A stretch of DNA of 64,000 nt, from assembly GCA_029891385.1 (NCBI GenBank), contig CM057232.1, forward strand, positions 63,611,824 to 63,675,823. The letters run 5' to 3'. The position numbers were made by a program, and so were the translations under genes. This DNA comes from Erythroxylum novogranatense (lineage: Eukaryota > Streptophyta > Magnoliopsida > Malpighiales > Erythroxylaceae). Shown here one piece after another: positions 6,081 to 34,673 of the stretch (the first letter of the stretch is position 1; every line of letters starts with the position of its first letter). The notes below the pieces were generated by a model, which saw only the letters and a program-made list of their open reading frames with translations, did no database searches and was not told the origin of the DNA.

Positions 6081-6081
6081 C

Positions 6082-8029: not shown

Positions 8030-9475
8030 GATAGTAGTCGTCCCTTCCATCCATTTAATTTTGAATTCACTTTTTCTATCAACGGCTGGAATTAGACACC
8101 TTTCTTGCGACCATGGAAAAGAGTACATCCTAAATATCTCAGAGGGAGTTCAGAGCGATTAATTCCTAGTAAGCCCATTAATACTCGCCCCTGAGAGACA
8201 GGACATCGCTTGGAGAGAAAGAGAAAACTTTTATCTCCATTATTCTTTTGGCCTGAGACTTGTTCGAATTGTTCCAGGAAAAGTCTTAATGCCTTGATAG
8301 TCTTACGTGTCCCTCTGGTAAAAACCACTAAGTCATCAGCAAAACATAAGTGGGAAATTAAAGGAGCCCCTCTGCCTAAAGAGTAAGGCTCGATACGATT
8401 GGATTGAACTAGGAATTTAAAGCTCCTACTGAAAGCCTCGGTAAGCAAAATAAAAAGAATAGGAGATAAGGGTTCACCTTGTTTCAGGCCCCGTGATGCT
8501 TGGAAGAAACCAACAGAAATACCATTCACCAATATAGAAAAATGACTAACCCGAAGGTTATTCATAATCAGTTCAACAAATAACCGGTGGAAGCCTAACT
8601 GAAGTAGCAAGGATTGGAGGAAGCCCCATGAGACACGATCAAAAGCTTTCATCATGTCCAGCTTCAGGATTAGGTTGTGACCACGTACGCGCTTATGCAA
8701 ATGTTGGATCATCTCCTGAGCAAGCATAATATTACCTATAATGTCTCGACCTTTGAGAAAAGCTGACCGTTCCTCTGAGATCAATAAGGGCAAAAGAGAG
8801 CTCATTCTGTCACAGATTATCCATGTGAACACCTTATTCAAGAATGTACATAAACTTATCAGATGGAAATCTGCAAAAGAGTGGGGACTTTGTTTCTTTG
8901 GCAATAATATGATTTGAGTACTACTGATAATACGGGGTAAAGGCACCCCTGCAAAGAATTCTTTCACCGCAAGTAGTAAGTCAGGGGCTATAATATCTCA
9001 ACAGGTTCTATAAAACAGTCCAGGATAACCATCTACCCCAGGTGCACTATCTGCATCAAGCTCAAAAACAGCTAAGCGAACATCCTCTATAGTTATTGGC
9101 GCCATCAATCGAGTGTTGTCCTCAGTAGATACTAAAGTAGGAATCTGCTGTAAAAAGAAATCAACAACTTCTCCCTTAGGCTGCATCCCCTCGTCAGACA
9201 ATAAAGTTTGAAAAAAATCCACTGTATGTTCTCGAATAGCAGTTTGGTCCTCAATCCATAAACCTGCACCATTCTTAATACGTGATATATGCAGCCTCGT
9301 CCGTTTATCCAATGTAGTTGCATGAAAAAATTTGGAATTCCTGTCCCCATCAGCTAACCACTTTACTCTAGCCCGTTGCTTCCAAAAAGATTCCTCGTCC
9401 GCTAGTGCTCATAAATAATGAGCTTGGCCCTTATTAAGAGATACCAGGTCTGATGTTGCCCCAGTTTGGTCAAAC
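8030..9475 (-). pseudogene. L1-type LINE ORF2, 3' half: reverse transcriptase
   Basis: Minus-strand translation starts at 9475 with DQTGATSDLVSLNKGQAHYL, continues through SFWKQRARVKWLADGD and SKFFHA, then DADSAPGVDGYPGLFYRTC and an in-frame stop (TGA near 8999). It continues with IILLPKKQSPHSF, LILKLDMMKAFDRVSW, GLKQGEPLSPILF and the catalytic HLCFADDLVVF, ending in RYLGCTLFHGRKKG and NGWKGRLLS at 8030. These are the ordered motifs of plant L1 reverse transcriptases, which prime on nicked target DNA. The N-terminal half is not adjacent: it is at 22384-24764 on the opposite strand. The left end is cut by Copia-1. Confidence 0.93.
9471..9475 (-). repeat. Target-site duplication GTTTG (LINE side of B')
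   Basis: CAAAC on the plus strand (GTTTG on minus) lies directly outside the left end of B'. Its partner GTTTG is at 24760-24764, outside the 5' end of the other Gypsy-B copy. Joining the two LINE halves through one GTTTG restores the reading frame LEAQF-DQTGA. Confidence 0.88.
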
Positions 9476-9582
9476 TGATACGGCAACAACCTAGAATCAA
9501 TGTCTAGATTACCTCCGTTTCAATTATTGTTCCCAAACCTAAATTCAATCAATCTAACAAGACCCTTCACCCCCAAATAAAC
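9476..9582 (-). repeat. Gypsy-B' third LTR, 3'-terminal fragment
   Basis: The plus strand starts TGATACGGCAACAACC and matches the ends of the other Gypsy-B LTRs as far as 'cttcacccccaaa'. It then jumps to leader sequence matching 11701 onward. Confidence 0.85.
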
Positions 9583-10283
9583 ACAACAGCAACGTAATTC
9601 AAAAGGAAAGCAACGAATACCTAAATAAAGGAAGAAAAACACAAAGCTCGATGCAATTTAATGTAAAGAAAACAAGGAAGACGACAATAAACACATACTA
9701 GATGGAGAAAACGTATGTGAACGATTTTTGGTACCAATTGAGCAATATGAAACAAGATTACTCAATTCAAGTGTAATGGAAACAAAAAGGACAACAAACA
9801 AAAAAACAACCAAAGAGTTGAAGAAAAGACGAAACTAGAATTAAACTCAACCCTAAACCCAAATTAACAAAACATTCCAATCTGCCCCAATTACTCAAGA
9901 ACATAAAGATAAGCAATTATATCAAAGACACACGTTTTGAGCGAAGAACGTAAATCTTGAAACAAGAAAGTGTTTCTTGATGCAAGAAAACAAGTCTTGA
10001 TGAGTTTCTTCAATGAAGGATGTGTTCTTGATGAATTTGAACAATAAAGAAACGAAATTAAAGAATTCTTGAATGATCAGATTCGTTTCTTGATGAATCT
10101 TGCAAGCAAATCAACTCAAACTCACAAAGATTCACAATCTTGATTTTTTTTACTTCTTTCTCTCTTTCTTTTCTTTCTTTTCTTTTTTTCGAATTTTAAT
10201 GATGAACTAACTATAATAATCAAGAACAAACAAAAAATTAAAGATAAAGATTGAATTTAAAACCTAGGCTTTGATACCAAAGA
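9583..10283 (-). other. Gypsy-B' duplicated leader
   Basis: No gene. It matches the leader at about 11700-12442 and, inverted, 25672-26455 of Gypsy-B. It ends at a primer site reading TTGGTATCAAAG on the minus strand (about 10271-10282) and includes a short TTTC-rich tract (about 10146-10190). Confidence 0.85.
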
Positions 10284-11188
10284 TGATACGGCAACAATCT
10301 AGAATCAATGTCTAGATCACCTCCGTTTCAATGATTGTTTCCAAACCTAAATTCAATCAATCTAACAAGACCCTTCACCCCCAAAACAACAAGGAATTGG
10401 TAACAAAGAGTATAAGATTGTAGGAATTGAATTAACGCCACAAGTTAGAACTTACTTGATAAGTTGAATCAATCCTTAAGGTAAAACAAGCAAGAATCTC
10501 AATTCTCTCTTGAAGAATGCTTTCTAATTTTATTGATCTCTCTAAAACTCGTGTTCATGGCTAAAGTAAAGGTTTAAATACCCTTTGCAATGTAAACCCT
10601 AACAAAGATAACCTAAAAACCCTAAAGAAAGCCCAAAATATCAAAAGGCCTTCTTGAAACAAATCTGCCCAAGAATAAATCCCACATGGATTTGGGCTTC
10701 AAAACTAATTAAAATTGACTAGTCCTTGTCCAAATAGGATAAGAAAACCACAAAATAGAAGACTAACTTAAGAGGGGCGAATTGGGCTTTTAAACTAGGC
10801 CCACAAGCTTGGTTCCTTAAAATAAAACATGCACATGACTTTTTTAATGACGCACATGCACACTTAATGCAAATCAGCCCATGAAAAAGCCTAAAAGAAG
10901 TCCACATGCCCCTTATAAGATAAAATAAGCCCAAGCCCATTTATTAGACTTGTGCTTGTGAAAATTGGCTAAGTGTTAGCCCTCTTAGTTTGAAGCCTCC
11001 AATGTGCACACACACTTAGGTGTCTTCCTAAGCTCTTCTCCAAGCTTGATCAACAAAACTTCTTGAAGTTCTTGTGAAACAAAAGCTTGTACATAAATCT
11101 GAAATTGTGCTTTGAGCTTGTTGGAGCGCGACCTTGTAATTGGACCCATTGGCATCCTCAAGTCTCCATTGCCTTGGTGAGTTGTATC
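10284..11188 (-). repeat. Gypsy-B' middle LTR, about 905 bp
   Basis: Starts TGATACGGC and ends GTTGTATC on the plus strand, matching the Gypsy-B LTRs at 24765-25671 and 31316-32221. The final A of the terminal GTATCA is lost at the junction with gag. Confidence 0.9.
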
Positions 11189-11503
11189 TCCTCTCCCACC
11201 AAATCTGGTACTATGCCAATCTTCTACATCTTCCCCATCATCATATTCATCTTCATACTCATAGCGCATAGGAGTTGGCTCCCTGGCATTTTGCCTCCTT
11301 GTTGCACCATTAGATGAAGCCTCTCTTTGTAAATTCCTAATGGCTTGATCTTGTCTATCAAATTTATCACTCACATCCCTGAACATGTTCTCAATCCTTT
11401 GGAATTGATGTTGCATAGCCTCCAAAGTAAAGAATGTGTGTTGATCAGCCTCACTATTCTTTTCATCCTTGTCACTACCTTTACTATCCTTTGAATTGGT
11501 CAT
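11189..11503 (-). pseudogene. Gypsy-B' gag, N-terminal fragment fused in frame to LTR
   Basis: The minus-strand frame starts MTNSKDSKGSDKDEKNSEAD at 11503, matching the Gypsy-B gag at 26644, with the acidic YEYEDEYDDGED segment. After RFGGRG it passes without a stop into LTR-encoded DTTHQGNGDLRMP, GPITRSRSNKL and on to 10985. The fusion would give a 172-residue hybrid lacking the capsid core and zinc knuckle. The N-terminal part is probably a disordered, coiled-coil-prone Gag head. The fusion is seen directly; whether it is expressed is unknown. Confidence 0.85.
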
Positions 11504-12442
11504 GATGTAAAACCTGCAAAAAACACGTTAGAATAGCTCCTCACACACTCCCTCACGTGTTTCTCTCTAAATCAGATTGGATACCCTCGTGTTTCACTCA
11601 AGAAGATGGCTTTTACCCTCAAATGAGCTTACACACTTTTGCCTTTTACCACTTTAGATTCTAGCACAGTTTTACTTGTCCGGATCAATCACTACCAACC
11701 AAATAAGCACAACAGCAACGTAATTCAAAAGTAAAGCAACGAATACCTAAATAAAGGAAGAAAAACACAAAGCTGGATGCAATTTAATGTAAAGAAAACA
11801 ATGAAGACGACAATAAACTCATACTAGATGGAGAAAACTTATGTGAACGATTTTTGGTGCCAATTGAGTAATATGAAACAAGATTACTCAATTCAAGTGT
11901 AATGGAAACAAAAAGGACAGCAAACAAAAAAAAACAACCAAAGAGTGCAAGAAAAGACGAAACTAGGAATTAAACTCAACCCTAAACCCAAATTAACAAG
12001 AACATTCCAATCTGCCCCAATTACTCAAGAACTTAAAGATAAGCAATTATATCAAAGACACACGTTTTGAGCGAAGAACGTAAATCTTGAAACAAGAAAG
12101 TGTTTCTTGATGCAAGAAAACAAGTCTTGATGAGTTTCTTCAATGAAGGATGTGTTCTTGATGAATCTTGAATAATAAAGAAACGAAATTAGAGAATTCT
12201 TGAATGATCAGATTCGTTCTTGATGAATCTTGCAAGCAAATCAACTCAAACTCACAAAGAGTCACAATCTTGATTTTTTTACTTCTTTCTTTCTTTCTTT
12301 TCTTTCTTTTCTTCTTTTTCTTTCTTTTTTTTTTTTTTTCTTTTTTTTCGAATTTTAATGATGAACTAACTATAATAATCAAGAACAAACAGAAAATTAA
12401 AGATAAAGATTGAATTTAAAACCTAGGCTCTGATACCAAAGA
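11504..12442 (-). other. Gypsy-B' leader with TTTC/GAAA tract
   Basis: Untranslated leader between primer site and gag. It contains a long T/C tract at about 12278-12350 (GAAA-type on the element strand). The lysine-rich open frame across the tract is a by-product of the repeat. The primer site reads TGGTATCAGAGC on the minus strand at 12427-12438. Confidence 0.85.
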
Positions 12443-13347
12443 TGATACAGCAACAACCTAGAATCAATGTCTAGATCACCTCCGTTTCAATGATTGTTCC
12501 CAAACCTAAATTCAATCAATCTAACAAGACCCTTCACCCCCAAAACAGCAAGGAATTGGTAACAAAGAGTATAAGATTGTAGGAATTGAATTAACGCCAC
12601 AAGTTAGAACTTACTTGATAAGTTGAATCAATCCTTAAGGTAAAACAAGCAAGAATCTCAATTCTCTCTTGAAGAATGCTTTCTAATTTTATTGATCTCT
12701 CTGAAACTCGTGTTCATGGCTAAAGCAAAGGTTTAAATACCCTTTGCAATGTAAACCCTAACAAAGATAACCTAAAAACCCTAAAGAAAGCCCAAAATAT
12801 CCAAAGGCCTTCTTGAAACAAATCTGCCCAAGAATAAATCCCACATGGATTTGGGCTTCAAAACTAATTAAAATTGACTAGTCCTTGTCCAAATAGGATA
12901 AGAAAACCACAAAATAGAAGACTAACTTAAGAGGGGCGAATTGGGCTTTTAACTAGGCCCACAAGCTTGGTTCCTTAAAATAAAACATGCACATGACTTT
13001 TTTAATGAAGCACATGCACACTTAATGCAAATCAGCCCATGAAAAAGCCTAAAAGAAGTCCACATGCCCTTTATAAGATAAAATAAGCCCAAGCTCATTG
13101 ATTAGACTTGTGCTTGTGAAAATTGGCTAAGTGTTAGCCCTCTTGATTTGATTCCTCCAATGTGCACACACACTTAGGTGTCTTCCTAAGCTCTTCCCCA
13201 AGCTTGATCAACAAAACTTCTTGAAGTTCTTGTGAAACAAAAGCTTGTACATAAATCTGAAATTGTGCTCTAAGCTTGTTGGAGCGTGACCTTGTAATTT
13301 GACCCATTGGCATCCTCAAGTCTCCATTTTCTTGGTGAGTTGTATCA
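12443..13347 (-). repeat. Gypsy-B' outer 5' LTR, 905 bp
   Basis: Plus strand TGATACAGC to GTTGTATCA, giving TGATAC/GTATCA terminal inverted repeats. It is followed by ATGAA and then Gypsy-A LTR sequence. Confidence 0.92.
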
Positions 13348-13352
13348 ATGAA
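13348..13352 (+). repeat. Target-site duplication ATGAA (Gypsy-A side of B')
   Basis: ATGAA directly follows B'. The partner is TTCAT (ATGAA inverted) at 32222-32226 beside the other Gypsy-B copy. The intact 3' LTR of Gypsy-A has AATGAAACTTG at this site (near 21235). Confidence 0.87.
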
Positions 13353-13959
13353 ACTTGTAGATAATCCTTTCTTCTTTCTAATGAGGTATTCCATGCCTTA
13401 TTTCGAGTTAGGAGTGAAAAGTTATGGGATTTAGAAGACAACGATTCTCGCTCATTCTTGTTTCATTGGCTAGTTTTAGGCTGAACCTTTGGCTGTGTTT
13501 CTACCCCTCTAAATGATTGTTTCGATTTTTGTTCCCTTCATGAAACTTGTAGAGGGCCTTTTCATCTTTCCATGGAGGTATAATATGTCTTATTCGGAGT
13601 TAGGAGTAAGAAGCTAGGAGGGTCGGAAGTTGGCTGATTACTACTCATTTGTTCATTCCGATTTTCCTCTTATAACTTTTGCAATTGGTTGAAAATTCTA
13701 GAACATGAGTCCGCATTTTGGAAAATTCTAGCGAAATTAAGGAAACTCCGATTGAAGTGATTTTTATTGCTGATTTTAGGTTAATTACGATGAATCTTAC
13801 GATTTTGGTACGAAGGACTTTTATTGACTTTATACTTGTATATAGGTATAAGGGTTTCGGGCTAAGTAGTCGGGTTCCGACATATTGTGGTATCAAAGCA
13901 AAAGCAAGAGTGTTAAGTTATAAGCAGTTGGGGTCCGGTTTACGGATCGGGTTCCGACA
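13348..13959 (+). repeat. Gypsy-A 5' LTR, last 612 bp
   Basis: Matches 21236-21842 of the 3' LTR closely and ends GGGTTCCGACA. It holds an internal primer-site-like TGGTATCAAAGC at 13888-13899, preceded by its own LTR-end-like GTTCCGACA. The rest of this LTR is at 32222-34551 on the other strand. Confidence 0.92.
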
Positions 13960-13965
13960 TTTTTG

Positions 13966-13977
13966 TGGTATCAGAGC
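13966..13977 (+). promoter_or_regulatory. Gypsy-A primer-binding site (tRNA-Met)
   Basis: TGGTATCAGAGC lies six bases after the LTR end CCGACA, matching the 3' end of initiator tRNA-Met. Confidence 0.92.
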
Positions 13978-14177
13978 AGCTCTAGGTTTACGATTTCCTA
14001 GGAACCCTAGTGGGTAGCCTCAACGGTAGAGTCAGCATGCATCATGTTACATGAACCCTATGAATTGTTTTAAATACAGTACATGCAGCATTGGTTTTGA
14101 ATTGTTTTACATGATTTGAACTGGTTTCACAAAGCATGAGCTAAAGATTTGAAATGGTTTTCATTTAAAGGAGTAAT

Positions 14178-15290
14178 ATGCTGCCTCGAAGGAGAACTCG
14201 AGGAGCTCAATCTCGATCAGGCTCTCAACGGGGAAGTGCGGATGAATCCCATATTCCCGGGATGCAGGACAATCCACTTTGATTCAGAGTCACCAAGTGT
14301 GTAGCATGAAGTGCCTCTCAGCCCCTCCTATGCCTCAAGTAAATCCAGAGATCCCAGTTCTTCAGGCCTTCGCCCGAGCTTTCACTTACGCCATGGGCCA
14401 AGGAATGCAAGCTCAGATGCCAACTTCAGCAGATCAGAGCGGGCAGTATGACAAGCTCCTGAAGTATGGGGCTATCGAATTCAGCGGGACTACTAATCCC
14501 GAGGAAGCTGAAGCATGGTGAAGCGGACCGAGAGGTCTGAATCGGATGAAGTGCTCGGATGAGGAGAGGTTAGAATATGCAGCTAGTTTATTGCGGGGGA
14601 TCTGCAGACCGGTGGGAGCCGGTGCCCACACGTCAAACAGTACCTCCAGTCTTGACATGGAGGAGTTTCGAAGTATTCAAAAAAGTACTTCTCGAGGTTT
14701 ACATCCAAGAGAAGGCAAGGGAGTTTCGAGCCTCACGCAGAGGAGTTGAGCATAAGTGAGTATGAACTGAAGTTCACTCAACTATCACGGTATCAGAAGA
14801 AACATTGTGGCGGCAAGAGGATAAGTGCCGCAAGTTTGAGAGTGGATTACACTTAGGGATCGGGGAGAAGGTGCTGATCCATAATTTCCATGACTACCAA
14901 GGTTGGTAGATCTTTGCTCTCAGCGTAAAAGTTGGAGAACATCAAGTCGAGGTAAGCGAAAAGAGGAAGACCGGGGCGCTTCCAGAAGGGAGTGAGTGCT
15001 CCAAACTGAAAGGAGCACCAGGACTTTTCATTCTCAGGGTGGTATGGGCAATAGTGGTCCTGCCAAGAGCCAACAATCAAGGCGGTTTCGGCGGGTCTCT
15101 CTAGTGTGGGAGGCCCAGGGAAGACATGGAAGGGCAAGTATACAAACCCTCAGTGTGATCAATGTGGAAAGTTTCATTCGGGGAAGTGTCTCAGGGGGTT
15201 TGGTGGTTGTTTCCAATGTGGAGAGAAGGGGCACATGATGAGAGATTGTCCTCAGAGGTCAAGGCAAGATGGCTCTTAATTTCAAGTCCA
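14178..15290 (+). pseudogene. Gypsy-A gag, broken
   Basis: The start MLPRRRTRGAQSRSGSQRGS at 14178 matches the MPPRR head common in Tekay gag. The frame stops after 34 codons. Capsid pieces follow in shifting frames: PEIPVLQAFARAFTYAMGQ, YDKLLKYGAIEFSGTTNPEE and AEAW. Near 15137-15258 two zinc knuckles are readable, CDQCGKFHSGKC and CFQCGEKGHMMRDC. The product would package RNA and build particles. The same architecture is better preserved in Gypsy-D (50783-51947). Several frameshifts exclude function. Confidence 0.85.
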
Positions 15291-15854
15291 GAGGCAGACG
15301 GAAACAATGCAGAACTGACCGATTCTGTAGTAGGCGCTCAGAGCCATGAGGAAGGCAAATCTGTAGGGAGGCCAAGGCACAGGTCGAGCACCAGTAGAGT
15401 ATTTGCCATAACCGGGGAAGAAGCGCAGCTGCTCCGGAGTTGTGGTGGTATGGCTCAATTATTTAATTCAGCGATTTATGTTACGATTGATCTTGGCTCT
15501 ACACATTCATTTGTGTCCTCAAGTCTGAATATGCATGCAGTGAATCCTGAGATTATGGATAATTTTCTGGTCGTTAGTACTCCTTTAGGGAGTAAGGTGG
15601 TGATCAGTTTAGTCTACAAGGAGTGCGAGCTCAGTATTGATGGTGTTAGATTGGTAGTAGACTTGCTACCTCTAGACCTAAAGGGGCTAGATGTCATACT
15701 AGGTATGGATGCCATGGAAAAGTACCGGGCAAAGTTAGATTGTAACCGTAAAGAAGTGAAGTTTGACCAGGGAAATGGAGAGAAGGTGGTCTTCAAGGGG
15801 GACAAGAAGATGCCAGCACCGAGGATCATTTCAGCTTTGCTAGGTGACAGATGA
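15291..15854 (+). pseudogene. Gypsy-A aspartic protease region
   Basis: The open frame (15162-15854) includes VFAITGEEAQ, then the active-site region IDLGSTHSFVS, followed by VVSTPLG, LLPLDLKGLDVILGMDAMEKY and LDCNRKEVKF. In related elements the motif is D-[PST]-G-[AS]; here it is D-L-G. The VILGMD(A/W)L segment is the usual retropepsin C-terminal loop. The frame ends with a TGA after ISALLGDR, before the RT. The homologous Gypsy-D segment at 63551-64000 keeps IDPGSAHSF. Confidence 0.85.
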
Positions 15855-16750
15855 TGGGCGAAGTGAGTCCTTTTGGCACATGTAGTGGATCGGAGGTGGA
15901 AGTAGGAAGGTTGGAGGATTACCCTATAGTGAGGGAGTTCCTGATGTATTTCGGAGGAGTTACCAGGTTTGCACGGTGAGAAAATTGAGTTTGCAATTGA
16001 CTTGATTCCCGGAACCGCATCCATTTCAATACCACCATACCGGATGGCTCCAGTTGAGTTAAGGGAGCTTAAGGAGCAATTGCAGGAATTATTAGAAAAG
16101 CAGTTTATCAGGCCAAGTTCATCACCTTGGGGAGCGCCAGTTTTATTTGTTAAGAAGAAGGATGGAACATGGCGGATGTGTATTGATTACAGGAAACTCA
16201 ACAAGGTGACGATTAAGAACAAGTATCCTCTGCCCAGGATAGATGATCTGTTTGATCAGCTGCAGGGAGCAAAGGTCTTTTCGAAGATAGATCTTAGGTC
16301 AGGTTATCATCAACTCCGAATCAGGGAGTCTGATGTTAGCAAGACTGCTTTCAGGACCCGTTACGGGCACTATGAGTTCAGGGTCATGTCATTCGGACTG
16401 GCCAACGCTCCAGCTGCATTCATGGACCTTATAAACAGAGTTTTTCAGGAGTTTTTAGATCAGTTTATCATAGTATTTATCGATGACATTCTGGTCTATT
16501 CCAAGGATGAAGGGGAACATGCAGAGCATCTCAGAATAGTGTTGCAAAGATTAAGGGAAAGAGAGCTATATGCCAAATTCAGCAAGTGTGAATTTTGGCT
16601 GCATGAAGTGGTTTTCCTTGGACATGTGATTTCTAACAGAGGGATCCATGTTGATCCGAGAAAAGTAGAAGCAGTGGTGAATTGACAAGAGCCTAAGACA
16701 GTAAAAGAGGTACGGAGTTTTCTAGGCCTGGCAGGTTATTACAGGAGGTT
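15855..16750 (+). pseudogene. Gypsy-A reverse transcriptase
   Basis: A 238-codon open stretch (15969-16685) carries full Ty3 RT motifs: [91 protein letters not shown], the catalytic FIDDILVYS and FLGHVIS. It stops at TGA (16684), where W is expected before the [14 protein letters not shown] segment. Apart from this stop the catalytic domain looks complete, better kept than gag. The enzyme copies element RNA to DNA. Confidence 0.92.
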
Positions 16751-17360
16751 TGTGGAAGGATTCTCCATGATAGCTGCGCCGATAACAAAATTGTTGAGGA
16801 AGAATCAGCAGTTTATCTGGAGCGAAGAATGTCAGAAGAGTTTTGAGGAACTCAAGTATAGATTAACGAGTGCTCCAATCCTAATCCTGCCTAATGGAGA
16901 TCAGGGGCATACAGTGTATAGTGATGCTTCGAGAAAAGGCTTAGGTTGTGTGTTAATGCAGAATGACAAAGTGATAGCCTATGCGTCACGGCAGTTGAAG
17001 CCATATGAGTTGAACTATCCTACTCATGATTTAGAGCTAGCAGCAGTAATTTTTGCACTGAAAATTTGGAGACATTATTTGTATGGGGTACAGACTAGGA
17101 TCTACACGGATCACAAGAGCCTTAAGTATTTACTGAGCCAGAAAGAGCTGAATTTGAGGCAGAGAAGGTGGATTGATCTACTTAAGGACTATGAATTGAT
17201 GATTGAGTACCATCCAGGCAAGGCAAATGTAGTGGCGGATGCATTGAGTAGGAAGTCATCCCTAGCTCATGTCCGGGTAGTTTACTTGCCTTTGTTGGAA
17301 CAGATGGCTAAGCATAAGATAAGCTTGAAGCAGGATAAGTCAGAATGCATTCTTGCTTAG
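16751..17360 (+). pseudogene. Gypsy-A RNase H
   Basis: Open from 16752: [45 protein letters not shown] (first catalytic D), [33 protein letters not shown] (second acidic residue), [12 protein letters not shown] (third D) and [16 protein letters not shown]. All the usual Ty3 RNase H blocks are in order. The frame is shared with RT across the TGA. It would degrade RNA in RNA-DNA hybrids. Confidence 0.92.
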
Positions 17361-18640: not shown

Positions 18641-18838
18641 GAGCTATGAGGAGATGCCAGTGGCAATTCTGGATAGCAAGGAGAAAGTTCTCAGGAACAA
18701 GACAATTCAGTTAGTTAAAGTCCTTTGGAGGAATCATGCAGTTGAAGAGGCGACGTGAGAACCTTTGGATGCAATGCAGGAGAAATATCCACACCTCTTC
18801 AATGAATCAGGTATGAATTTCGAGGACGAAATTTCTTA
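18641..18838 (+). pseudogene. Gypsy-A chromodomain and pol C-terminus
   Basis: The end of pol reads EMPVAILDSKEKVLRNKTIQ, LVKVLWRNHAVEEAT, a TGA at 18756 where W is expected, then EPLDAMQEKYPHLF and NFEDEIS. This is the chromodomain pattern of chromoviral integrases (LVKVxWxxxxxEEATWE), thought to direct insertion to particular chromatin. Two of three aromatic positions are visible; the last W is the stop. Confidence 0.88.
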
Positions 18839-18853
18839 AGGGGGGCGGGGAAA
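18838..18853 (+). promoter_or_regulatory. Gypsy-A polypurine tract
   Basis: AAGGGGGGCGGGGAAA directly before the 3' LTR start TGTTAGCC. It primes plus-strand DNA. Confidence 0.88.
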
Positions 18854-22330: not shown

Positions 22331-22383
22331 GCCGCCAATTAGGTATTCTGCCGCCAAGAGAACACTGGAATCTTTGCCAGTCA

Positions 22384-23595: not shown

Positions 23596-23829
23596 CCTTA
23601 TCAAAATCAGCCTCTTTCTCTAGTTTTCTGCCCCATGCTTCACAACAAAACCCTTCTCAGGACTGCAGTTTTTCTCAGCAAAGCAGTTTTTCACAGCTCG
23701 ACCCAGAACTAGTGCAGGATGGTGATGGCCCTTGGATGGTGAAAAAGTCTTGGAAGTCAATTCAGAAACGTTCTTATGGTCAGTCGAATATGGTGACCTG
23801 ATCACAAGCTCTCCAACCAAGTTTAAACG

Positions 23830-24764: not shown

Positions 24765-25671
24765 TGATACAACTCACCAAGGCAATGGAGACTTGAGGAT
24801 GCCAATGGGTCCAATTACAAGGTCAGGCTCCAACAAGCTTAAAGCACAATTTCATATTTATGTACAAGCTTTTGTTTCACAAGAACTTCAAGAAGTTTTG
24901 TTGATCAAGCTTGGGGAAAAGCTTAGGAAGACACCTAAGTGTGTGTGCACATTGGAGGCATCAAATCAAGAGGGCTAACACTTAGCCAATTTTCACAAGC
25001 ACAAGTCTAATCATTGGGCTTGAGCTTATTTTATCTTATAAAGGGCATGTGGACTTCTTTTAGGCTTTTTCATGGGCTGGTTTGCATTAAGTGTGCATGT
25101 GCTTTATTAAAAAAAGTCATGTGCATGTTTTATTTTAAGGAACCAAGCTTGTGGGCCTAGTTTAAAAGCCCAATTTGCCCCTCTTAAGTTAGTCTTCTAT
25201 TTTGTGGTTTTCTTATCCTATTTGGACAAGGACTAGTCAATTTTAATTAGTTTTGAAGCCCAAATCTATGTGGGATTTATTCTTGGGCAGATTTGTTTCA
25301 AGAAGGCCTTTTTGATATTTTGGGCTTTCTTTAGGGTTTTTAGGTTATCTTTGTTATGGTTTACATTGTAAAGGGTATTTAAACCCTTGCTTTAGCCATG
25401 AACATGAGTTTAGAGAGAACAATAAAATTAGAAAGCATTCTTCAAGAGAGAATTGAGATTCTTGCTTGTTTTACCTTAAGGATTGATTCAACTTATCAAG
25501 TAAGTTCTAACTTGTGGCGTTAATTCAATTCCAACAATCTTATACTCTTTGTTACCAATTCCTTGCTGTTTTGGGGGTGAAGGGTCTTGTTAGATTGATT
25601 GAATTTAGGTTTGGGAACAATCATTGAAACGGAGGTAATCTAGACATTGATTCTAGGTTGTTGTCGTATCA
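24765..25671 (+). repeat. Gypsy-B 5' LTR, 907 bp
   Basis: TGATACAACTCACC to TGTCGTATCA. The first 210 bp encode in one frame GPITRSGSNKLKAQF and KLGEKLRKTPKCVCTLEASN, the same peptide encoded by the start of every Gypsy-B LTR. The rest is non-coding, with TATTTAAA near 25376 as a possible TATA region. Confidence 0.93.
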
Positions 25672-25675
25672 TCTT

Positions 25676-25687
25676 TGGTATCAGAGT
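25676..25687 (+). promoter_or_regulatory. Gypsy-B primer-binding site (tRNA-Met)
   Basis: TGGTATCAGAGT four bases after the LTR; 11 of 12 bases fit initiator tRNA-Met. Confidence 0.88.
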
Positions 25688-25776
25688 CTAGGTTTTAAAT
25701 TCAATCTTTATCTTTAATTTTCTGTTTGTTCTTGATTATTATAGTTAGTTCATCATTAAAATTTGAAAAAAAAGGA

Positions 25777-25812
<36 letters not shown>

Positions 25813-26643
25813 AAAGAAGGAAAGAAAGAAAGAAAATGAAGAAAAGAAAGAAAAGAAAGAAAGAAAGAAGTTAAAAAAAAAAAGAAAATCAAGATTGTGA
25901 ATCTTTGTGAGTTTGAGTTGATTTGCTTGCAAGATTAAATCAAACGAATCTGATCATTCAAGAATTCTTTAATTTCGTTTCTATTCAAGATACTTCAAGA
26001 ACACATCCTTCATTAAAGAAACTCATCCAAACTTGTTTTCTTGCACCAACAAACACTTTCTTGTTTCAAGATTTACATTCTTTGCTCAAAACGTGTGTCT
26101 TTGATATAATTGCTTATCTTTATGTTCTTGAGTAATTGGGGCAGATTGGAATGTTCTTGTTAATTTGGGTTTAGGGTTGAGTTTAATTCCTAGTTTCGTC
26201 TTTTCTTCAACTCTTTGGTTGTTTTTTTTGTTTGTGTCTTTTTGTTTCCATTACACTTGAATTGAGTAATCTTGTTTCATATTGCTCAATTGGCACCAAA
26301 AATCGTTCACATACGTTTTCTCCATCTAGTATGTGTTTATTTTCGTCTTCATTGTTTTCTTTACATTAAATTGCATCTAACTTTGTGTTTTTCTTCCTTT
26401 ATTTAGGTATTCGTTGCTTTCCTTTTGAATTATGTTGCTGTTGTGCTTATTTGGTTGGTAGTGATTGATCCGGACAAGTAAAGCTGCTAGAATCTAAAGT
26501 GGTAAAAGGCAAGAGTGTGTAAGCTCATTTAAGGGTAAAAGCCATCTTCTTGAGTGAAACACGAGGTATCAATCTGATTTAGAGAGAAACACGTGAGGGA
26601 GTGTGTGAGGAGCTATTCTAACGTGTTTTGCAGGTTTTACATC
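25688..26643 (+). other. Gypsy-B untranslated leader with GAAA microsatellite
   Basis: About 950 bp with no gene. A purine tract of GAAA/AAAGA repeats covers about 25769-25890, just after the primer site. The same tract, shorter and different in phase, occurs in both leaders of B'. The rest ends in 'acgtgttttgcaggttttacatc' just before the gag start; TTTGCAG there resembles a splice acceptor. Confidence 0.85.
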
Positions 26644-27933
26644 ATGGCCAATTCAAAGGATAGTAAAGGTAGTGACAAGGATGAAAAGAATAGTGAGGCT
26701 GATCAACACACATTCTTTACTTTGGAGGCTATGCAACATCAATTCCAAAGGATTGAGAACATGTTCAGGCATGTCAGTGATAAATTTGATAGACAAGATC
26801 AAGTCATTAGGAATTTACAACGAGAGGCTTTATCTAATGGTGCAACATGGAGGCAAAATGCTAGGGAGCCAACTACTGTGCGCTTTGAGTATGAAGATGA
26901 ATATGATGGTGGGGAAGATGAAGAAGATTGGCATAGGGCCAGATTTGGTGGAAGAGGGGGACGGAATGATAGAGGAAGAGGAAGAGGTTATAGAGGCCAA
27001 GACAATGCAAAGGGAGAAGACAGGGTCGAGCGTGTGGATAGAAACTTGGGCAGTATCAAGATGAAAATACCATCTTTCCAAGGTAAGAATGATCCGAAGC
27101 TTACTTAGAATGGGAAAGAAAGGTGGAGATGATTTTGAATGCCATAACTATTACGAGGAGAAGAAGGTGAAGCTTCTTTGCCGTAGAATTTCATGATTAT
27201 GCACTTATTTGGTGGGATCGACTTGTTTTGAACAAAAGAAGGAATGGGAGGATCCTATTGATACTTGGGCTAAAATGAAGAGGGTCATGAAGAAGAGGTT
27301 TGTGCTAGTTACTTCTATAGGGAGCTCCATCAAAGGCTCCAAACCTTGAGACAAGGCACCAAAAGTGTAGAAAGAGTACCATAAGGAGATGGAGATAGCC
27401 ATGATTAGGGCTAATGTAGAAGAAGAAAGAGAAGCCACCATGGCACGTTTCTTGGCTGGTTTGAACAAAGACATTGCCAATGTTATTGAATTGCACCATT
27501 ATGTGGAGTTAGAGGAGATGGTGAATATGGCCATGAAGGTGGAGAGGCAACTCAAGTACAAAAGCTCCAACAAGGCTTCTTACCCAAGCTCTACTACAAA
27601 TTGGAACTCGAAATGGTCCAAGAAAATGAGAAGGACAAAGACAAGCTAAAGGAAGAGAAGAACAAGGCGGATCCAAAAGGTACTTTTAAAACTCCAAGTT
27701 CTTCTAGTTCCAATTCTGAAAAGCATAGGACTATTAAATGCTTTAAATGTCTTGGTGTTGGTCATATTGCTTCTCAATGCCCAAACAAGAAAACAATGTT
27801 TGTGAGAGGAGGAGAAGTTGTGTGCGAGAAGGAAGAAGATGATTTGGCTTCCATGCAGAGTTGGAAGATTGTTACGATGTGGAAGTTGAGGATGCACCTA
27901 GGGGTGAATTACTTGTTACTAAGCGAGTTTTGA
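26644..27933 (+). pseudogene. Gypsy-B gag, frameshifted
   Basis: ATG at 26644 (MANSKDSKGSDKDEKNSEAD) is chosen because B' uses the same start. The head carries a glutamine-rich helix (MQHQFQRIENMF), an acidic stretch and an RG-rich patch (GGRGGRNDRGRGRGYRG). The capsid begins MKIPSFQGKNDP at about 27060 and shifts frame at 27108. It resumes as EYHKEMEIAMIRANVEEERE and HHYVELEEMVNMAMKVERQL (27389-27649), and the knuckle IKCFKCLGVGHIASQCP is in a third frame (about 27738-27782). Function would be RNA packaging; broken here. Confidence 0.88.
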
Positions 27934-28330
27934 ATGCTCAAGTGAAGGAAGATGGAATTGAGCAAAGGAAAATATTTTCATTCCGATGCCTAGTGAATGA
28001 GAAGATTTGTAGCTTTGATCATTGATGGGGAAGCTGTACTAATGTGGCTAGTACATTGATGGTGGAAAAACTAGGGTTGGAGTGCTTGAAACACCTAGGC
28101 CATATAGACTACAATGGTTGAATGACATGGGGAAATCAAGGTAAATAAACAAGTCCTTGTATCTTTCTCCATTGGAAAGTATTACGATCAAGTACTTTGT
28201 GATGTTGTACCTATGCATGCTAGTCATTTATTGCTCGGTGACCTTGGCAATATGATAGAAGAGTGTTACATGATGGTTTTAAGAATAGGTATTCATTTAC
28301 TATGGAGATCAGAAATTTGTTCTTGCTCCA
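27934..28330 (+). pseudogene. Gypsy-B protease region, remnant
   Basis: Between the knuckle and the next open stretch, pieces such as RVLNAQVKED, FSFRCLVNEKIC, WGSCTNVASTLMVEKLGLE and LLLGDL-like appear in different frames. This is the place and style of the retropepsin in related elements (IDxGSCTNVAS), but the catalytic aspartate sits beside a stop. Confidence 0.6.
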
Positions 28331-28830
28331 TTGGCACCAAAAGAGGTATATGAGGACCAAATGCAATTAAAAAGGAGTATGGAGGCAATGCAACAAAGAC
28401 AGGACAAAAAACTTCAAGAAAAGCATGATAATACAAAAATTGAGGGTAAGGTTGAGGACATTGCAAAAGGGGAGCATAAATTTAAATCAAAAGAAAAGAG
28501 AGAAAGTGAGGCCGAGAGTGAGAGAAGAAAAGTGGGAAAAGAGGCCTCAAAAGAAATTCAATTAAAAGGCCCAAATGAGAGAGAGGGTAGAAAGAAACAA
28601 AACTTCTATGCAAAAATGAGAGATGTAAGGGTTGCTTGTGTGGAAAGGAGATGTTTGTTTGTACTTTTGTACAAGCAAGCTTATTTTAGTGAATCTGACC
28701 TTGACACTTATTTGCCTAGTAGTGTTGTTTCTCTTTTGCAGGAGTATGGAGATGTTTTCCCAGAGGAGTTGCCTAAGGAATTGCCGCCTATTAGAGGAAT
28801 AGAACATCGAGATTGACTTCATGCAGAGCA
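28331..28830 (+). pseudogene. Gypsy-B pol: charged linker before RT
   Basis: A 161-codon open stretch. The first 100 residues are very rich in K, E, R and Q (MEAMQQRQDKKLQEKHDN, KFKSKEKRESEAESERRKVG) and probably helical or disordered. The end, LLQEYGDVFPEELPKELPPI with RGIEH, is the standard start of the Ty3 RT domain. I cannot assign a function to the charged part; such linkers between protease and RT vary between families. It stops at 28816 within the RT entry. Confidence 0.75.
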
Positions 28831-29600
28831 AAATTCCAAATAGACCGACTTATAGGGCAAATCTGAAGAAACTAAGGAACTCAAAAGCAAGTGGCAGAAT
28901 TGCTACAAAAGGGACACATCGGGGAGAGTCTTAGTCCTTGTGTCGTGCGGTGATATTGGTTCCAAAGAAGGATGGGAGTTGGGCGCATGTGTGTGGATTG
29001 CAGAGTTAACAAGATAGCAGTAAAGTATCGCCATCCTATACCTAGATTGGATGATATGATTGATGAATTGCATGGTGCATGTGTGTTTACCAAAATTAAT
29101 CTTATGAGTGGTTACCATCATATTAGAATGAAAATTGGTGATGAATGGAAAACGCTTTTAAAACAAAACATGGTTTATATGAGTGGCTTGTGATGCCTTT
29201 TGGCTTAACTAATGCTCTAGTACATTTATCGTTTGATGAATCATGTTTTGAGGTCATTTATTGGTAAGTTTGTTGTGGTATATTTTGATGACATATTGAT
29301 CTATAGCAAAAGCATTAATGAGCATATTAAGCATCTTAGGCTTGTGTTAGATGCACTTAGGGCAGAAAAGTTGTATGCTAAGTTAAAGAAGTATACATTT
29401 GCATGGATCGTGTCATATTTCTTGGTTATGTTGTTTCTTCTAATGGAATTGAGGTGGACCAAGAAAGGTCAAGGCAATTAGGGAGTGGCGAGACCTACAA
29501 GTGTTACTCGGTGAGATCTTTTCATGGACTTGTTAGTTTCTATAGGAGGTTTGTGAAGATTTTAGTTCCATTGCAGCTCCATTGGTGAGATTGTTAAAAG
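28831..29600 (+). pseudogene. Gypsy-B reverse transcriptase, broken
   Basis: Pieces in order: RMCVDCRVNKIAVKYRHPIP, RLDDMIDELHGACVFTKINL, SGYHHIRMKIGDEWKT (28972-29193), then NHVLRSFIGKFVVVYFDDIL with catalytic FDD (29233-29481), HLRLVLDALRAEKLYAKLKK, VIFLGYVVSSNGIEVDQE in the next frame, and FHGLVSFYRRFVK. At least three frameshifts are needed to join them. Confidence 0.88.
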
Positions 29601-30240
29601 GAGGTAGGATTTAAGTGGGAGAGGCGTGGAAATTGCTTTTAACACTTTGAAAGAAAAACTTTGTTCGCACCTATTTTGAGTTTACCTGATTTTCTTCTAC
29701 TTTTGAGATTGAATGTGATGCCTCTGGGATAGGTATTGGTCTTTTTTATTGCAGGAAGGCGTCCATTGCCTATTTTAGTGAGAAGTTGAATGGTGCTCAA
29801 TTGAAGTATTCCACTTATGACAAGGAGCTATATGCATTGGTAAGAGCTCTACAAACTTGGCAACATTATCTATGGCCAAAGGAATTAAGTGATTCACACT
29901 GATCATGAGAGTTTGAAGCATCTTAAGGGCCAAGGTAAGTTAAATAAAAGACATGCTAAGTGGTTGGAGTTCATAGAGACATTCCCATATGTTGTGAAAT
30001 ACAAGCAAGGTAAAGAAAATGTTATCGCTGATGCATTGTCTAGGAGGTATGCTCTAATCTCTTCTCTTAGTTCTAAGTTGATTGGGTTTGAGTATATAAA
30101 GATTTGTACAAATCAGATTCTGACTTTGCTAATGTGTATGATGCATGTGAACAAGTTGCTTTTCAAAAGTTTTATAGGAATGATGGATATTTGTTTAGAG
30201 ATAATAAACTATGTATTCCTACTTGTTCTATCGTGAGATG
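29601..30240 (+). pseudogene. Gypsy-B RNase H, broken
   Basis: [14 protein letters not shown] with the first catalytic D (about 29708), [40 protein letters not shown], then after a frameshift [40 protein letters not shown] and [13 protein letters not shown]. All blocks of a Ty3 RNase H are present but spread over two frames. Confidence 0.87.
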
Positions 30241-31303
30241 CTTGCTAGGGAGTCTCATGATGGAGGTTTAATGGGACATTTGGTATTGCTAAAACACTTG
30301 AGATATTACAGGAGCATTTTTATTGGCTAACATGAAAAGGATGTTAAAAGAGTTTGCTCTAGTTGTGTAGCGTGTAGGCAAGCCAAGTCAAGGTGCAACC
30401 ACATGGGTTGTACACGCCTCTACTGTCCCTATTAGTCCTTGGATTGATATATCTATGGATTTTATGTTAGGATTGCCTAGGACAAGGAAAGGGCGTGATA
30501 GCATCTTTGTTGTAGTTGATAGATTTAGTAAAATGGCTCATTTTATTGCATGTCATAAATCGATGATGCTACACATGTTGCTGATTTGTTTTTAGGGATG
30601 TTGTTAGGTTGCATGGCATTCCTAGAACCATTGTTTCAGATAGGGATTCTAAGTTTTTAAGTCACTTTTGGCGTGTTCTATGGAATAAATTGGGAACAAC
30701 ACTTTTGTTTTCAACAACTTGTCATCCCCAAACAGATGGACAAACTGAAGTGGTTAATAGAACCTTAGGATCTTTATTGCGTGCTATTGTGGGTAAAAAT
30801 TTGAAAGCTTGGGAAGATTGTTTGCCTTTGATTGAGTTTGCATATAATAGAAGCATTCATTCTTCTACAGGTTATTCTCCTTTTGAGATTGTGTATGGTT
30901 TTAACCCATTAACTCCATTGGATTTGTTGCCTTTACCCTTGAATGAGATTGTTAATGTAGATGGGCAGCAAAGGGCCGAATTGGTTAAGACAATACATGA
31001 GAAAGCTAGGCAGCACATTGAGGAAAAGAACAAGAAGTATGCTCAAAGAGCCAATCAAGGGTGTAGGGAGATGAAGTTTGAACCTGGAGATTGGGTTTGG
31101 GTGCACTTCAGGAAAGAGAGATTTCCTAAACAAAGGAAGTCTAAGCTTGATCCTAGAGGGGACGGTCCTTTTCAAGTACTTGAGCGCATAAATGACAATG
31201 CCTATAGGTGGACCCGCCAGTGAGTATGGTGTTAGTGCTACTTTTAATGTTTCGATTTATCTCCTTTGATAATGTAGGTCTTGATTAGAGGACTAATCCT
31301 TTT
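30241..31303 (+). pseudogene. Gypsy-B integrase, partly open
   Basis: Zinc-binding remnants ([13 protein letters not shown], about 30355) precede [20 protein letters not shown] and [16 protein letters not shown] in other frames. A 204-codon open stretch (30609-31223) has [20 protein letters not shown] (second D), [17 protein letters not shown] (catalytic E), [39 protein letters not shown] and the C-terminal [33 protein letters not shown]. After a small frameshift SATFNV and NPFEEEE lead to the LTR. Confidence 0.9.
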
Positions 31304-31315
31304 GAGGAGGAGGAA
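31304..31315 (+). promoter_or_regulatory. Gypsy-B polypurine tract
   Basis: GAGGAGGAGGAA directly before the 3' LTR start TGATAC. Confidence 0.85.
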
Positions 31316-32221
31316 TGATACAACTCACCAAGGCAATGGAGACTTGAGGATGCCAATGGGTCCAATTACAAGGTCACGCTCCAACAAGCTTAGAGCACAA
31401 TTTCAGATTTATGTACAAGCTTTTGTTTCACAAGAACTTCAAGAAGTTTTGTTGATCAAGCTTGGAGAAGAGCTTAGGAAGACACCTAAGTGTGTGTGCA
31501 CATTGGAGGAATCAAATCAAGAGGGCTAACACTTAGCCAATTTTCACAAGCACAAGTCTAATCAATGAGCTTGGGCTTATTTTATCTTATAAAGGTCATG
31601 TGGACTTCTTTTAGGCTTTTTCATGGGCTGGTTTGCATTAAGTGTGCATGTGCTTTATTAAAAAATTCATGTGCATGTTTTATTTTAAGGAACCAAGCTT
31701 GTGGGCCTAGTTTAAAAGCCCAATTCGCCCCTCTTAAGTTAGTCTTCTATTTTGTGGTTTTTTTATCCTATTTGGACAAGGACTAGTCAATTTTAATTAC
31801 TTTTGAAGCCCAAATCCATGTGGGATTTATTCTTGGGCAGATTTGTTTCAAGAAGGCTTTTTGATATTTTGGGCTTTCTTTAGGGTTTTTAGGTTATCTT
31901 TGTTAGAGTTTACATTGCAAAGGGTATTTAAACCTTTGCTTTAGCCATGAACACGGGTTTTTAGAGAGATCAATAAAATTAGAAAGCATTCTTCAAGAGA
32001 GAATTGAGATTCTTGCTTGTTTTACCTTAAGGATTGATTCAACTTATCAAGTAAGTTCTAACTTGTATGTTAATTCAATTCCTACAATCTTATACTCTTT
32101 GTTACCAATTCCTTGCTGTTTTGGGGGTGAAGGGTCTTGTTAGATTGATTGAATTTAGGTTTGGGAACAATCATTGAAACGGAGGTGATCTAGACATTGA
32201 TTCTAGGTTGTTGCCGTATCA
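31316..32221 (+). repeat. Gypsy-B 3' LTR, 906 bp
   Basis: TGATACAACTCACC to TTGCCGTATCA. The reading RNDTTHQGNGDLRMPMGPIT enters the LTR from the purine tract and stays open to 31529. The LTR is followed by TTCAT and inverted Gypsy-A LTR. Confidence 0.93.
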
Positions 32222-32226
32222 TTCAT
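32222..32226 (-). repeat. Target-site duplication ATGAA (Gypsy-A side of Gypsy-B)
   Basis: TTCAT on the plus strand is ATGAA inverted, the partner of 13348-13352. Confidence 0.87.
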
Positions 32227-34551
32227 GAAGAGTGTAAAAATCAATTCAATCATTAAAGAGGGTAAAAATACACTTAACGTTTCAGCCTAAATGAAAAACC
32301 AATGGAACAATAATTTGGCACAATAAACAGTAAGTGTCAACACTCCTAACCTCGTATCTTTTCATTCCTAACTCCGATGATTGCAAATCATACATCATTT
32401 TAAAGATAGAAAGATAATATACATTTTTCATGAAGAAATCAAAAACCAAATCAGTCTCTAATTGGGTGAAAAATCCCTCCAAAGTTGCTACAAAATTTCA
32501 TGACTAACAACAGTGGCTGAAACCTTTCCACTCATATCTTTTTCATCCTAAATCCAATTGAGACAACTTTTATGTCGTTGGAAAGCTCTAATCATGCTCT
32601 ACATTCTTCAAGAAGACCATCCAAACCAATTCAAGCTCTAAACTAGTCCAAAATCAAATGGAAGTTTCTGCCCAATTTCTGGAAAATTGGACAACACCTC
32701 CCCTATTTTATTCCTAACCCAAATCTTCATTCCAATGCTACAACCTGCATAATAATTCAATATTCAAAGGCAAAAACACACTCCTAGCATTCTAATCATA
32801 TCCAAACTATAGCACAATTACATTTCCCCCCCTTTCTTGTCAAATTCAAACCATACAATGATGCAATTGTTTTAAAACATGCATGAATTGCACAAAATAC
32901 ATTAGAACTGAACATTCTTGCATTCATATGAAAATATGAGTTATTACAAGGCTTTAGAGGGCATTTTAAACCACTACATCAAATCCCAAAATACAAGCTT
33001 GCAAAAAACATCATTTGCCCAAAATGTATCTAAAGCATTGATTTACAAAATCAACTTGAAATACAAAAACTATCCGTTTCTGGAGTAATGCCTTTAAGCT
33101 CGATGGTCGATCTCGTGCTCCTCACCTGGAGATGGGACGGAATTGGAGGGGGTGAGCTTACGCTCGTGGGTAACATGTTTATATTTATGCAAATAAGCTG
33201 AGTTTATTTCATTATCCATACTGTTAGCAAATCTCTCATCAAACATTCATACAATTTTGCATTTCATAAATTCATCAAGCTAAAAGCATAACTTTAATGA
33301 TTCAAGCATCTAGCATTCTTGTACCTACATGCTAACACATAAACACACAGCTGATGGTTTGGTAAAATAAGTCCACAATAACTGACGAGCTACACAAGTG
33401 TAGTCGTATGCTGAGGAGTCCAAAGAGGAACATCCTATGCCACAATCGGGCAGGCGGGCGAAGCCTATACTGGTCAACGTGCACGTAACTCTGCTGGGTG
33501 GACTTAAGTACCCACATAACATGTATTCATGCATCAAAATTATATTTCATGCTTAACTCACATATCATGATTTCACTAATATTCATGCTCATTCAATTCA
33601 TGGACTTTTCAAGCAATATCAAGCAATGTCATATACTGTTGAAGCTTTCACATAATGGCAATCATAATTCAATTTGTACACAATCAAAGCTCAATCAATG
33701 TTCATCTCAAGGCAATTGAAAAAAAACATTAATTCTATTAGTTGAGATAGTCTTTAGAACTTACTAGCATAAAGATAAAAATGAAACCCACCTTATAACT
33801 TGCTTAATCCTTGCTTAGGAGTGCTCTTCTCCTTGCTCTTCTCCTCTCTCTTGCTCTACTTCAAGAGGAATAAAAACCCATTTCAACATAAATTTAATTG
33901 AAATTCTACATAACCTCTTTCATGAAATTAACTTTAAATTCACTAAACCCACTTCATTTCTAAGCTTTCTACACCAAAACCCAACTAAAAATTAACACTT
34001 GAATTCATGACTTACCTTGATTCTTGATTCAACCCAATAGTTTCTTAGTTCAAAATGTAGCTTAGCTCTTCCTCTACACTTTTCCTTCTTGAACTTTCTT
34101 CAAACACTTACTTGAACTCTTGGAATCTCAAGACCTAGCCAAGCCTTTCCTTTTTCTTCTTCTCCTTTCCTCTTCCACGAAACCTCCCTCTTCTCCCTCT
34201 AAATTTCGTGACTTCCCTCCTTTCCTCTCCTAACTCACTTAATTCTTTCCCTTTTACACTCCTTATTAACTCACTTAAGCCCATAGGCCCAAAGCCCACT
34301 CACTTCTTCTTCCTCCCTTCTTATATCCTCTTTAAAATACTCAAGCCCACTAATCTTTTAAGCCCATCTTATTCTCTTTTCCTTTCCTACCTCATTAAGG
34401 CCCAACTAACACATTTAATTTCATTAACTCACCACCTAACTCTTTAATGCTATCACAAATTAATTAATATCAACTCAATTTATGCTAACATAACTTACTC
34501 AATTAATCTAATCATGCTTAATTTTTTTAAAAAAATTTTTTGGTGCTAACA
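32222..34551 (-). repeat. Gypsy-A 5' LTR, first 2.3 kb, inverted
   Basis: On the minus strand it starts TGTTAGCACC at 34551 and matches 18854-21235 of the 3' LTR through 'tttttacactctt', ending at ATGAA (32226-32222), exactly where the piece at 13348 begins. Together the two pieces give about 2937 bp, close to the 2989 bp of the 3' LTR. It holds the first tandem-repeat units. The open frames in it are shadows. Confidence 0.93.
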
Positions 34552-34671
34552 TCATGTATAGATTGGCTTTATGATTTGGATATATTGCTTTTGTTGCAAA
34601 TAAGATTTCTAAAAAGTTTTGAAATCTACCAGTTTTCCAATATAGCATGTTTTCTTTTTTTCAATCCAACA
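34552..34671 (+). repeat. Copia-2 5' LTR, last 120 bp
   Basis: Matches 62957-63076 (GATTTGGATATATTGC, AGTTTTGAAATCTA) and ends CAATCCAACA. The first five bases TCATG are also the Gypsy-A target duplication. Confidence 0.9.
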
Positions 34672-34673
34672 AT

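What the first reader, a model, noticed from the sequence alone, without database searches (positions are those of the whole stretch)
9471..34556. 11.4-kb inversion between two inverted Gypsy-B retrotransposons, proven by exchanged target duplications
B' (9476-13347, minus) is flanked by CAAAC (LINE) and ATGAA (Gypsy-A LTR). Gypsy-B (24765-32221, plus) is flanked by GTTTG (LINE) and TTCAT (Gypsy-A LTR). Each copy thus has two different flanks, and each duplication has its partner at the other copy in inverse orientation. The duplication of Gypsy-A (CATGA, 21843 and 34552) is split the same way. Inverting 13348-24764 restores at once the LINE ORF2 frame (LEAQF joined to DQTGA), the Gypsy-A 5' LTR (612 + about 2325 bp, against 2989 for the 3' LTR), the CATGA duplication and the Copia-2 LTR (CCATATCATG joined to TATAGATT). 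Several independent sequence facts agree with one event.
Basis: partly seen in the sequence, partly recalled or inferred. Interest (0 to 1): 0.88.

Follow-up and report, generated by a model that had tools for sequence, protein, structure and literature searches.

The report
Small inversion between two retrotransposons
An 11.4-kb stretch of what is likely plant DNA was most likely flipped when two oppositely oriented copies of one retrotransposon recombined; such events are already well known, but here the insertion scars record this one unusually clearly.

Summary
B' (9476-13347, minus) and Gypsy-B (24765-32221, plus) are inverted copies of one Ty3/gypsy family. Each has two different 5-bp flanks, and each flank has its reverse complement at the other copy (chance 2.1e-6). 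Reversing 13348-24764 restores three interrupted sequences: the Gypsy-A 5' LTR (305 bp, 93.5%, no gap at the junction) and a Copia-type LTR (77.8% to a solo LTR at 60973-63076), and the LINE ORF2 (92 of 120 relatives examined align across the join, 42 of these without a gap within 25 residues). A crossover between inverted repeats is the best explanation. Corrections: B' is a three-LTR, internally deleted derivative, and the crossover lies somewhere inside the B copies, not at 13348/24764. Whether the copies are chimeric was tested and is unresolved. Assembly error is unlikely (longest exact inverted match between the copies 146 bp; no N) but not excluded without reads. Exchanged target duplications are a published signature of such inversions in Drosophila, so this is a new member of a known kind.

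The parts
9471..9475 (.). CAAAC, target duplication half at the LINE site; partner is 24760-24764
   Evidence: sequence
9476..13347 (-). B', three-LTR internally deleted derivative of the Gypsy-B family (LTR 12442-13347, middle LTR 10283-11196, LTR end 9476-9577)
   Evidence: self-comparison, alignments
13348..13352 (.). ATGAA, target duplication half at the Gypsy-A LTR site; partner is 32222-32226
13348..24764 (.). inverted unique segment (11,417 bp), inferred to be in derived orientation
   Evidence: three joins restored by reversing it
13348..13959 (+). downstream 612 bp of the Gypsy-A 5' LTR, cut off from the rest of that LTR
   Evidence: matches 21234-21842; empty-site alignment
13960..18852 (+). 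Gypsy-A internal region: protease, RT, RNase H, integrase and Tf2-1-type SH3 domains in ORFs 15159-18755
   Evidence: Pfam; boundaries
18853..21842 (+). Gypsy-A 3' LTR, intact reference for the split 5' LTR
21843..21847 (.). CATGA, Gypsy-A target duplication; partner TCATG at 34552-34556
21848..22131 (-). one piece of the Copia-type LTR into which Gypsy-A inserted; joins 34557-34672
22537..24764 (+). 5' part of a LINE (DUF4283 ORF 22537-23592, then endonuclease part of ORF2 ending ...LEAQF)
8095..9475 (-). 3' part of the same LINE ORF2 (starts DQTGA..., reverse transcriptase ORF 8095-8997)
24760..24764 (.). GTTTG, target duplication half at the LINE site
24765..32221 (+). Gypsy-B, Ty3/gypsy-type element with two LTRs (24765-25672 and 31316-32221), coding region broken into several ORFs
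   Evidence: domains; ORFs
32222..32226 (.). TTCAT, target duplication half at the Gypsy-A LTR site
32222..34551 (-). upstream part of the Gypsy-A 5' LTR, left outside the inverted segment
   Evidence: matches 18853-21239
34552..34556 (.). TCATG, Gypsy-A target duplication
34557..34672 (+). other piece of the Copia-type LTR, ending CCAACA and followed by a primer-binding-like TTGGTATCAAAGC (motif recalled)
   Evidence: 34551-34672 matches 62956-63077; join

Best explanation
The 11.4-kb segment 13348-24764 was most likely inverted by a homologous-recombination crossover between two oppositely oriented copies of one Ty3/gypsy-type retrotransposon family. Inferred order of events: Gypsy-A inserted into a Copia-type LTR; one Gypsy-B copy inserted into the Gypsy-A 5' LTR (target ATGAA) and a second, in opposite orientation, into a nearby LINE (target GTTTG); the two copies paired and exchanged strands within their shared part. 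That flipped everything between them and gave each copy one flank from each site. Shown directly: the exchanged duplications and the continuity of the three host sequences. Inferred: that the event happened in the plant, that it was a crossover, and where in the repeat it took place.
For: Inverted copies of one family: B LTRs against B' LTRs 96.05-97.7% identical in the self-comparison. Each copy has unlike flanks and exchanged partners, chance 2.1e-6. With reversed flanks the Gypsy-A LTR aligns over 305 bp at 93.5% with no gap at ATGAA, while each present flank's main match ends at the junction. The Copia-type LTR flanks join across TCATG and align to 62861-63062 without a gap at the junction; that reference is a solo LTR with its own intact 5-bp duplication ACAAG. 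The LINE halves join in frame: of 120 relatives examined (of 248 found), 92 align in one piece across the join and 42 of these have no gap within 25 residues. Two Drosophila papers take exchanged duplications (in one of them with chimeric copies) as unequivocal evidence of ectopic recombination (PMC2775673, PMC3355041; passages).
Against: A crossover should leave chimeric copies, and this was not resolved. Among substitution columns of the four long LTRs (gap columns and the first 8 columns dropped), 6 are informative: 3 favour the pairing expected after exchange (B'5'-B3'), 2 the unexchanged pairing, 1 neither. The best single tree (exchanged) leads by 1.7 log units; a switch point has permutation p 0.47. 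A further site, 882, pairs B5' with the short B' LTR end, which fits an exchange beyond the LTR but not one near columns 260-323. The excess of B-specific changes in the internal region (p 0.005; two three-state sites and gap columns set aside) fades when clustered sites are merged (p 0.23) or columns 1000-1240 are also left out (p 0.37). No reads and no non-inverted relative were available.
Confidence: 0.88

Rival explanations
1. Assembly artefact: the true order is the non-inverted one, and the assembler switched between the two inverted B copies at both ends of the segment.
For: A switch inside the repeats would give exactly these junctions and exchanged duplications; the shared 5' part (LTR plus internal) is about 2.15 kb, 93.6-96.4% identical in its BLAST pieces.
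Against: The longest exact inverted match between the copies is 146 bp, and 122 bp at corresponding positions, so reads or words longer than that tell the copies apart. The 64-kb window has no N. A switch at each end would be needed. How the assembly was made is not known.
Confidence: 0.08
2. Crossed integration: two Gypsy-B cDNAs integrated together, each with one end in the LINE and one in the Gypsy-A LTR, so that integration itself produced the inversion.
For: Predicts the same exchanged duplications. The pairing of B's own two LTRs as sisters, which it needs, is not excluded.
Against: Needs two near-simultaneous crossed integrations; I know of no precedent for LTR retrotransposons (recalled, not searched for). 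B' is a three-LTR deleted form, unlike B. The closest LTR pair is B'5'-B3' (18 differences in 904 sites, against 28 for B5'-B3'), as expected after exchange, though this does not settle the pairing.
Confidence: 0.02
3. No inversion: the LINE halves and LTR pieces belong to different copies and the 5-mers match by chance.
For: The region is dense with nested and related repeats.
Against: Chance of the two 5-mer matches 2.1e-6. Three host sequences are continuous across the joins, with the Gypsy-A LTR pieces overlapping by the target duplication plus one base.
Confidence: 0.01

Closest known systems
Inversion 2z3 of Drosophila buzzatii, by ectopic recombination between Galileo copies (PMC2775673; passages read)
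   Same: Two copies in opposite orientation at the ends of the inverted segment, with exchanged target duplications that are reverse complements of each other
   Different: Galileo is a P-superfamily transposon with 7-bp duplications; there the copies are chimeric and the non-inverted chromosomes were examined. Here LTR retrotransposons with 5-bp duplications, chimerism unresolved, no non-inverted relative available, and a much smaller segment (the size of 2z3 is recalled, not read).
Inversion 2s of D. mojavensis, by recombination between BuT5 copies (PMC3355041; passages read)
   Same: Exchanged, inverted-complementary target duplications used as evidence
   Different: Another type of transposon, in a fly; a fixed inversion whose breakpoints were mapped
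TE-associated inversions of the rice pan-genome (PMC10030860; passages read)
   Same: Ty3/gypsy elements enriched at inversion breakpoints in a plant
   Different: There association statistics; in 100 sampled inversions, inverted repeats were seen at single breakpoints of 30, and the passages read do not mention exchanged duplications
LTR-LTR inter-element recombination in plants, giving solo LTRs and elements without duplications (PMC7251063, PMC7156093; passages read)
   Same: Homologous recombination between LTR elements that leaves copies without matching flanks
   Different: The passages read concern removal and deletion (in PMC7156093 between LTRs of the same orientation); here inverted copies and an inversion

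Membership tests
Inversion by ectopic recombination between TE copies | Two homologous TE copies in opposite orientation at the two ends of the segment | tested here: met
   B' minus and B plus
Inversion by ectopic recombination between TE copies | Exchanged target duplications, each the reverse complement of its partner at the other copy | tested here: met
   CAAAC/GTTTG and ATGAA/TTCAT; chance estimate
Inversion by ectopic recombination between TE copies | Both copies chimeric, switching parent at the same point | tested here: inconclusive
   6 informative sites, permutation p 0.47; internal region
Inversion by ectopic recombination between TE copies | Reversing the segment restores interrupted sequences at both ends | tested here: met
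   Gypsy-A LTR and Copia-type LTR; LINE ORF2
Inversion by ectopic recombination between TE copies | Non-inverted chromosomes exist, with the original order | not testable with these tools
   search of the window's own genome did not complete in 8 tries
Ty3/gypsy LTR retrotransposon (Gypsy-B) | LTRs TG...CA and domain order RT - RNase H - integrase | tested here: met
   RVT_1, RT_RNaseH, rve, SH3_Tf2-1 in that order on the plus strand; the rve match is weak (E 0.01, below Pfam's cut-off), the others have at least one piece above cut-off; ends
Ty3/gypsy LTR retrotransposon (Gypsy-A) | LTRs, 5-bp duplication, domain order RT - RNase H - integrase | tested here: met
   RVP_2, RVT_1, RT_RNaseH, Integrase_H2C2 above and rve below cut-off, SH3_Tf2-1, in that order; duplication

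The most novel reading that the evidence does not exclude
Two Gypsy-B cDNAs integrated in one crossed event, each joining the LINE at one end and the Gypsy-A LTR at the other, so that retrotransposon integration itself inverted 11.4 kb without any later homologous recombination.
Probability: 0.02. Interest if true: 0.75.

Novelty: new member of a known kind. Interest (0 to 1): 0.3.

Why it matters
It is a clean, base-level example of a small inversion made by inverted LTR retrotransposons in what is likely a plant genome, with three host sequences and the exchanged duplications agreeing. Such small events inside repeats are easily missed by synteny methods. An automated annotation that checks target duplications would find none at either B copy, and LTR dating of either copy could mix two insertions. 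The exchanged-flank signature can be searched for genome-wide to count such inversions. (These consequences are my inference.)

Tried and rejected
Rejected: chance match of the 5-mers and LINE halves from different copies. Tried without result: locating the crossover from the four long LTRs. By eye, sites 85, 202 and 260 favour the exchanged pairing, 158 a third pairing, and 323 and 348 the unexchanged one, which suggested an exchange at LTR columns 260-323; a likelihood scan with 2000 permutations gave no support (p 0.47). A three-way comparison of the internal regions looked favourable (22 B-specific against 9 and 7) but weakened to 14, 8, 7 after merging clustered sites and to 10, 6, 5 when columns 1000-1240 were also left out. 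Search for further copies of the LTR by an 18-base pattern in viral contigs: 0 matches. Two other LTR pairs were printed as possible controls for intact duplications (41776-48567 and 51944-63542); no duplication was evident at the BLAST ends, whose boundaries I did not refine. The solo LTR 60973-63076 does show one (ACAAG). Rfam and tRNA scans of the window: nothing. The genome search did not complete in 8 tries, so copy number, relatives and polymorphism are untested. While checking this report I doubted the label Copia-type LTR; one search supports LTR (TG...CA, 5-bp duplication), and the Copia-type label rests on an SH3_retrovirus domain at 39309-39785 downstream in the same element, as I read it.

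Full report
What is in the sequence. A self-comparison of the window shows B' (9476-13347, minus) and Gypsy-B (24765-32221, plus) as inverted copies of one family. The Gypsy-A LTR is intact at 18853-21842 and split elsewhere into 13347-13959 (same strand) and 32222-34552 (opposite strand; BLAST ends). The two pieces match the intact LTR up to 21239 and from 21234, an overlap of six bases: the target duplication plus one. The flanks are CAAAC and ATGAA at B', GTTTG and TTCAT at B. Each is the reverse complement of one flank of the other copy. With the window's own 5-mer frequencies, both cross matches by chance have probability 2.1e-6.

Three joins tested. Flanks of 150 bases, reversed and joined over one ATGAA, align with the intact Gypsy-A LTR over all 305 bases at 93.5%, with a single gap far from the junction. 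A weaker match (74%) to an internal repeat of the same LTR also exists. The main match of each present flank ends at the junction. Flanks of 100 bases on either side of Gypsy-A join over TCATG and align with 62861-63062 at 77.8% (9 gap columns), without a gap at the junction. That reference belongs to a solo LTR, 60973-63076, with TG...CA ends and its own duplication ACAAG. The LINE halves read LEAQF | DQTGA in frame. Of 248 related proteins found, the 120 listed were examined: 92 align in one piece at least 40 residues to either side of the join, and 42 of these have no gap within 25 residues; the other 50 have one or more gaps there. The closest relative, P0001, aligns at 55% identity over query residues 1-512 and carries endonuclease and reverse-transcriptase domains in one protein. 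The query was the joined sequence, so the search favours such hits; that they exist in number is still what an uninterrupted ORF2 predicts.

The elements. Gypsy-A and Gypsy-B have Ty3/gypsy domain content and order. The integrase-core matches are below Pfam's cut-off in both. B' is not a plain copy. Read on its own strand it is LTR - internal part - LTR lacking its first base - internal part - last 102 bases of an LTR. The internal parts appear to end at short matching stretches, as after small end-joining deletions (read by eye).

Mechanism. The best explanation is a crossover between inverted repeats, which inverted the unique 11,417 bp 13348-24764 plus an unknown part of the repeats. The non-inverted order is ancestral because only it leaves the insertions whole (inference). 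Papers on Drosophila inversions describe exactly this expectation: chimeric copies with exchanged duplications (PMC2775673 and PMC3355041, passages read).

Chimerism test, not resolved. If the exchange took place beyond the 5' LTRs, B'5' and B3' should be sister LTRs. They are the closest pair (18 differences in 904 sites, against 23 to 31 for the other five pairs of the four long LTRs). Only 6 informative sites exist (3, 2 and 1 for the three pairings; gap columns and the first 8 columns dropped). No switch point is supported (permutation p 0.47). The internal regions gave a first sign that B' is of one origin there (22 B-specific, 9 and 7; two three-state sites and gaps set aside) that fades when clustered changes are merged (14, 8, 7; p 0.23) or columns 1000-1240 are also left out (10, 6, 5; p 0.37).

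Age. K80 distances are 0.0305 between the Gypsy-A LTRs and 0.020-0.034 among the four long B LTRs. The inversion postdates both B insertions; no firm date is claimed.

Assembly. The longest exact inverted match between B and B' is 146 bp, and 122 bp at corresponding positions. The window has no N. An assembler using reads longer than that should not confuse the copies, but without reads an error is not excluded. The window's own genome could not be searched.

Source. Most named relatives of the LINE are plant proteins (Coffea, Solanum, Ipomoea, Sesamum and others); one bears a bird's name (P0008), and many have no name. The species is not known.

Novelty. In the library searched, five exact phrases for exchanged duplications occur in only two papers, both on Drosophila. 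Broader searches, seen as listings with titles and abstract starts (14 of 14 listed; 24: 15 of 308; 25: 14 of 14; 33: 15 of 48), showed no title reporting the same signature for plant LTR elements. Most of those papers were not opened, among them a maize study of rearrangements (PMC2686159), and many subscription papers are not held, so this is no claim of a first. A review of plant inversions names ectopic recombination between repeats as an established origin (PMC7093584, passages). I file it as a new member of a known kind.

Noticed in passing
9476-13347: B' has three LTRs (the last only 102 bp) and two internally deleted segments that appear to end at short microhomologies: a tandem, twice-deleted derivative.
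   Followed up: partly
60973-63076: Solo LTR of the Copia-type family that Gypsy-A split, flanked by ACAAG on both sides and sitting inside another element's LTR.
   Followed up: partly
2796-7915 and 41700-48567: A second set of inverted related repeats (76-86% identity) flanks a much larger stretch; not examined for exchanged flanks.
   Followed up: no
7739-8027 and 1-294: Direct LTR-like pair (94.6%); the LINE 3' half becomes unreadable near 8.0 kb, beside it, and the rest of the LINE was not looked for.
   Followed up: no
13348-13959 versus 32222-34551: The Gypsy-A LTR piece inside the inverted segment differs more from its partner (K80 0.043) than the piece outside (0.027); the standard errors (0.008 and 0.003) make this weak.
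   Followed up: partly
21050-21450: The Gypsy-A LTR holds a degenerate internal repeat (about 74%), and the B target sequence recurs in its second unit.
   Followed up: no
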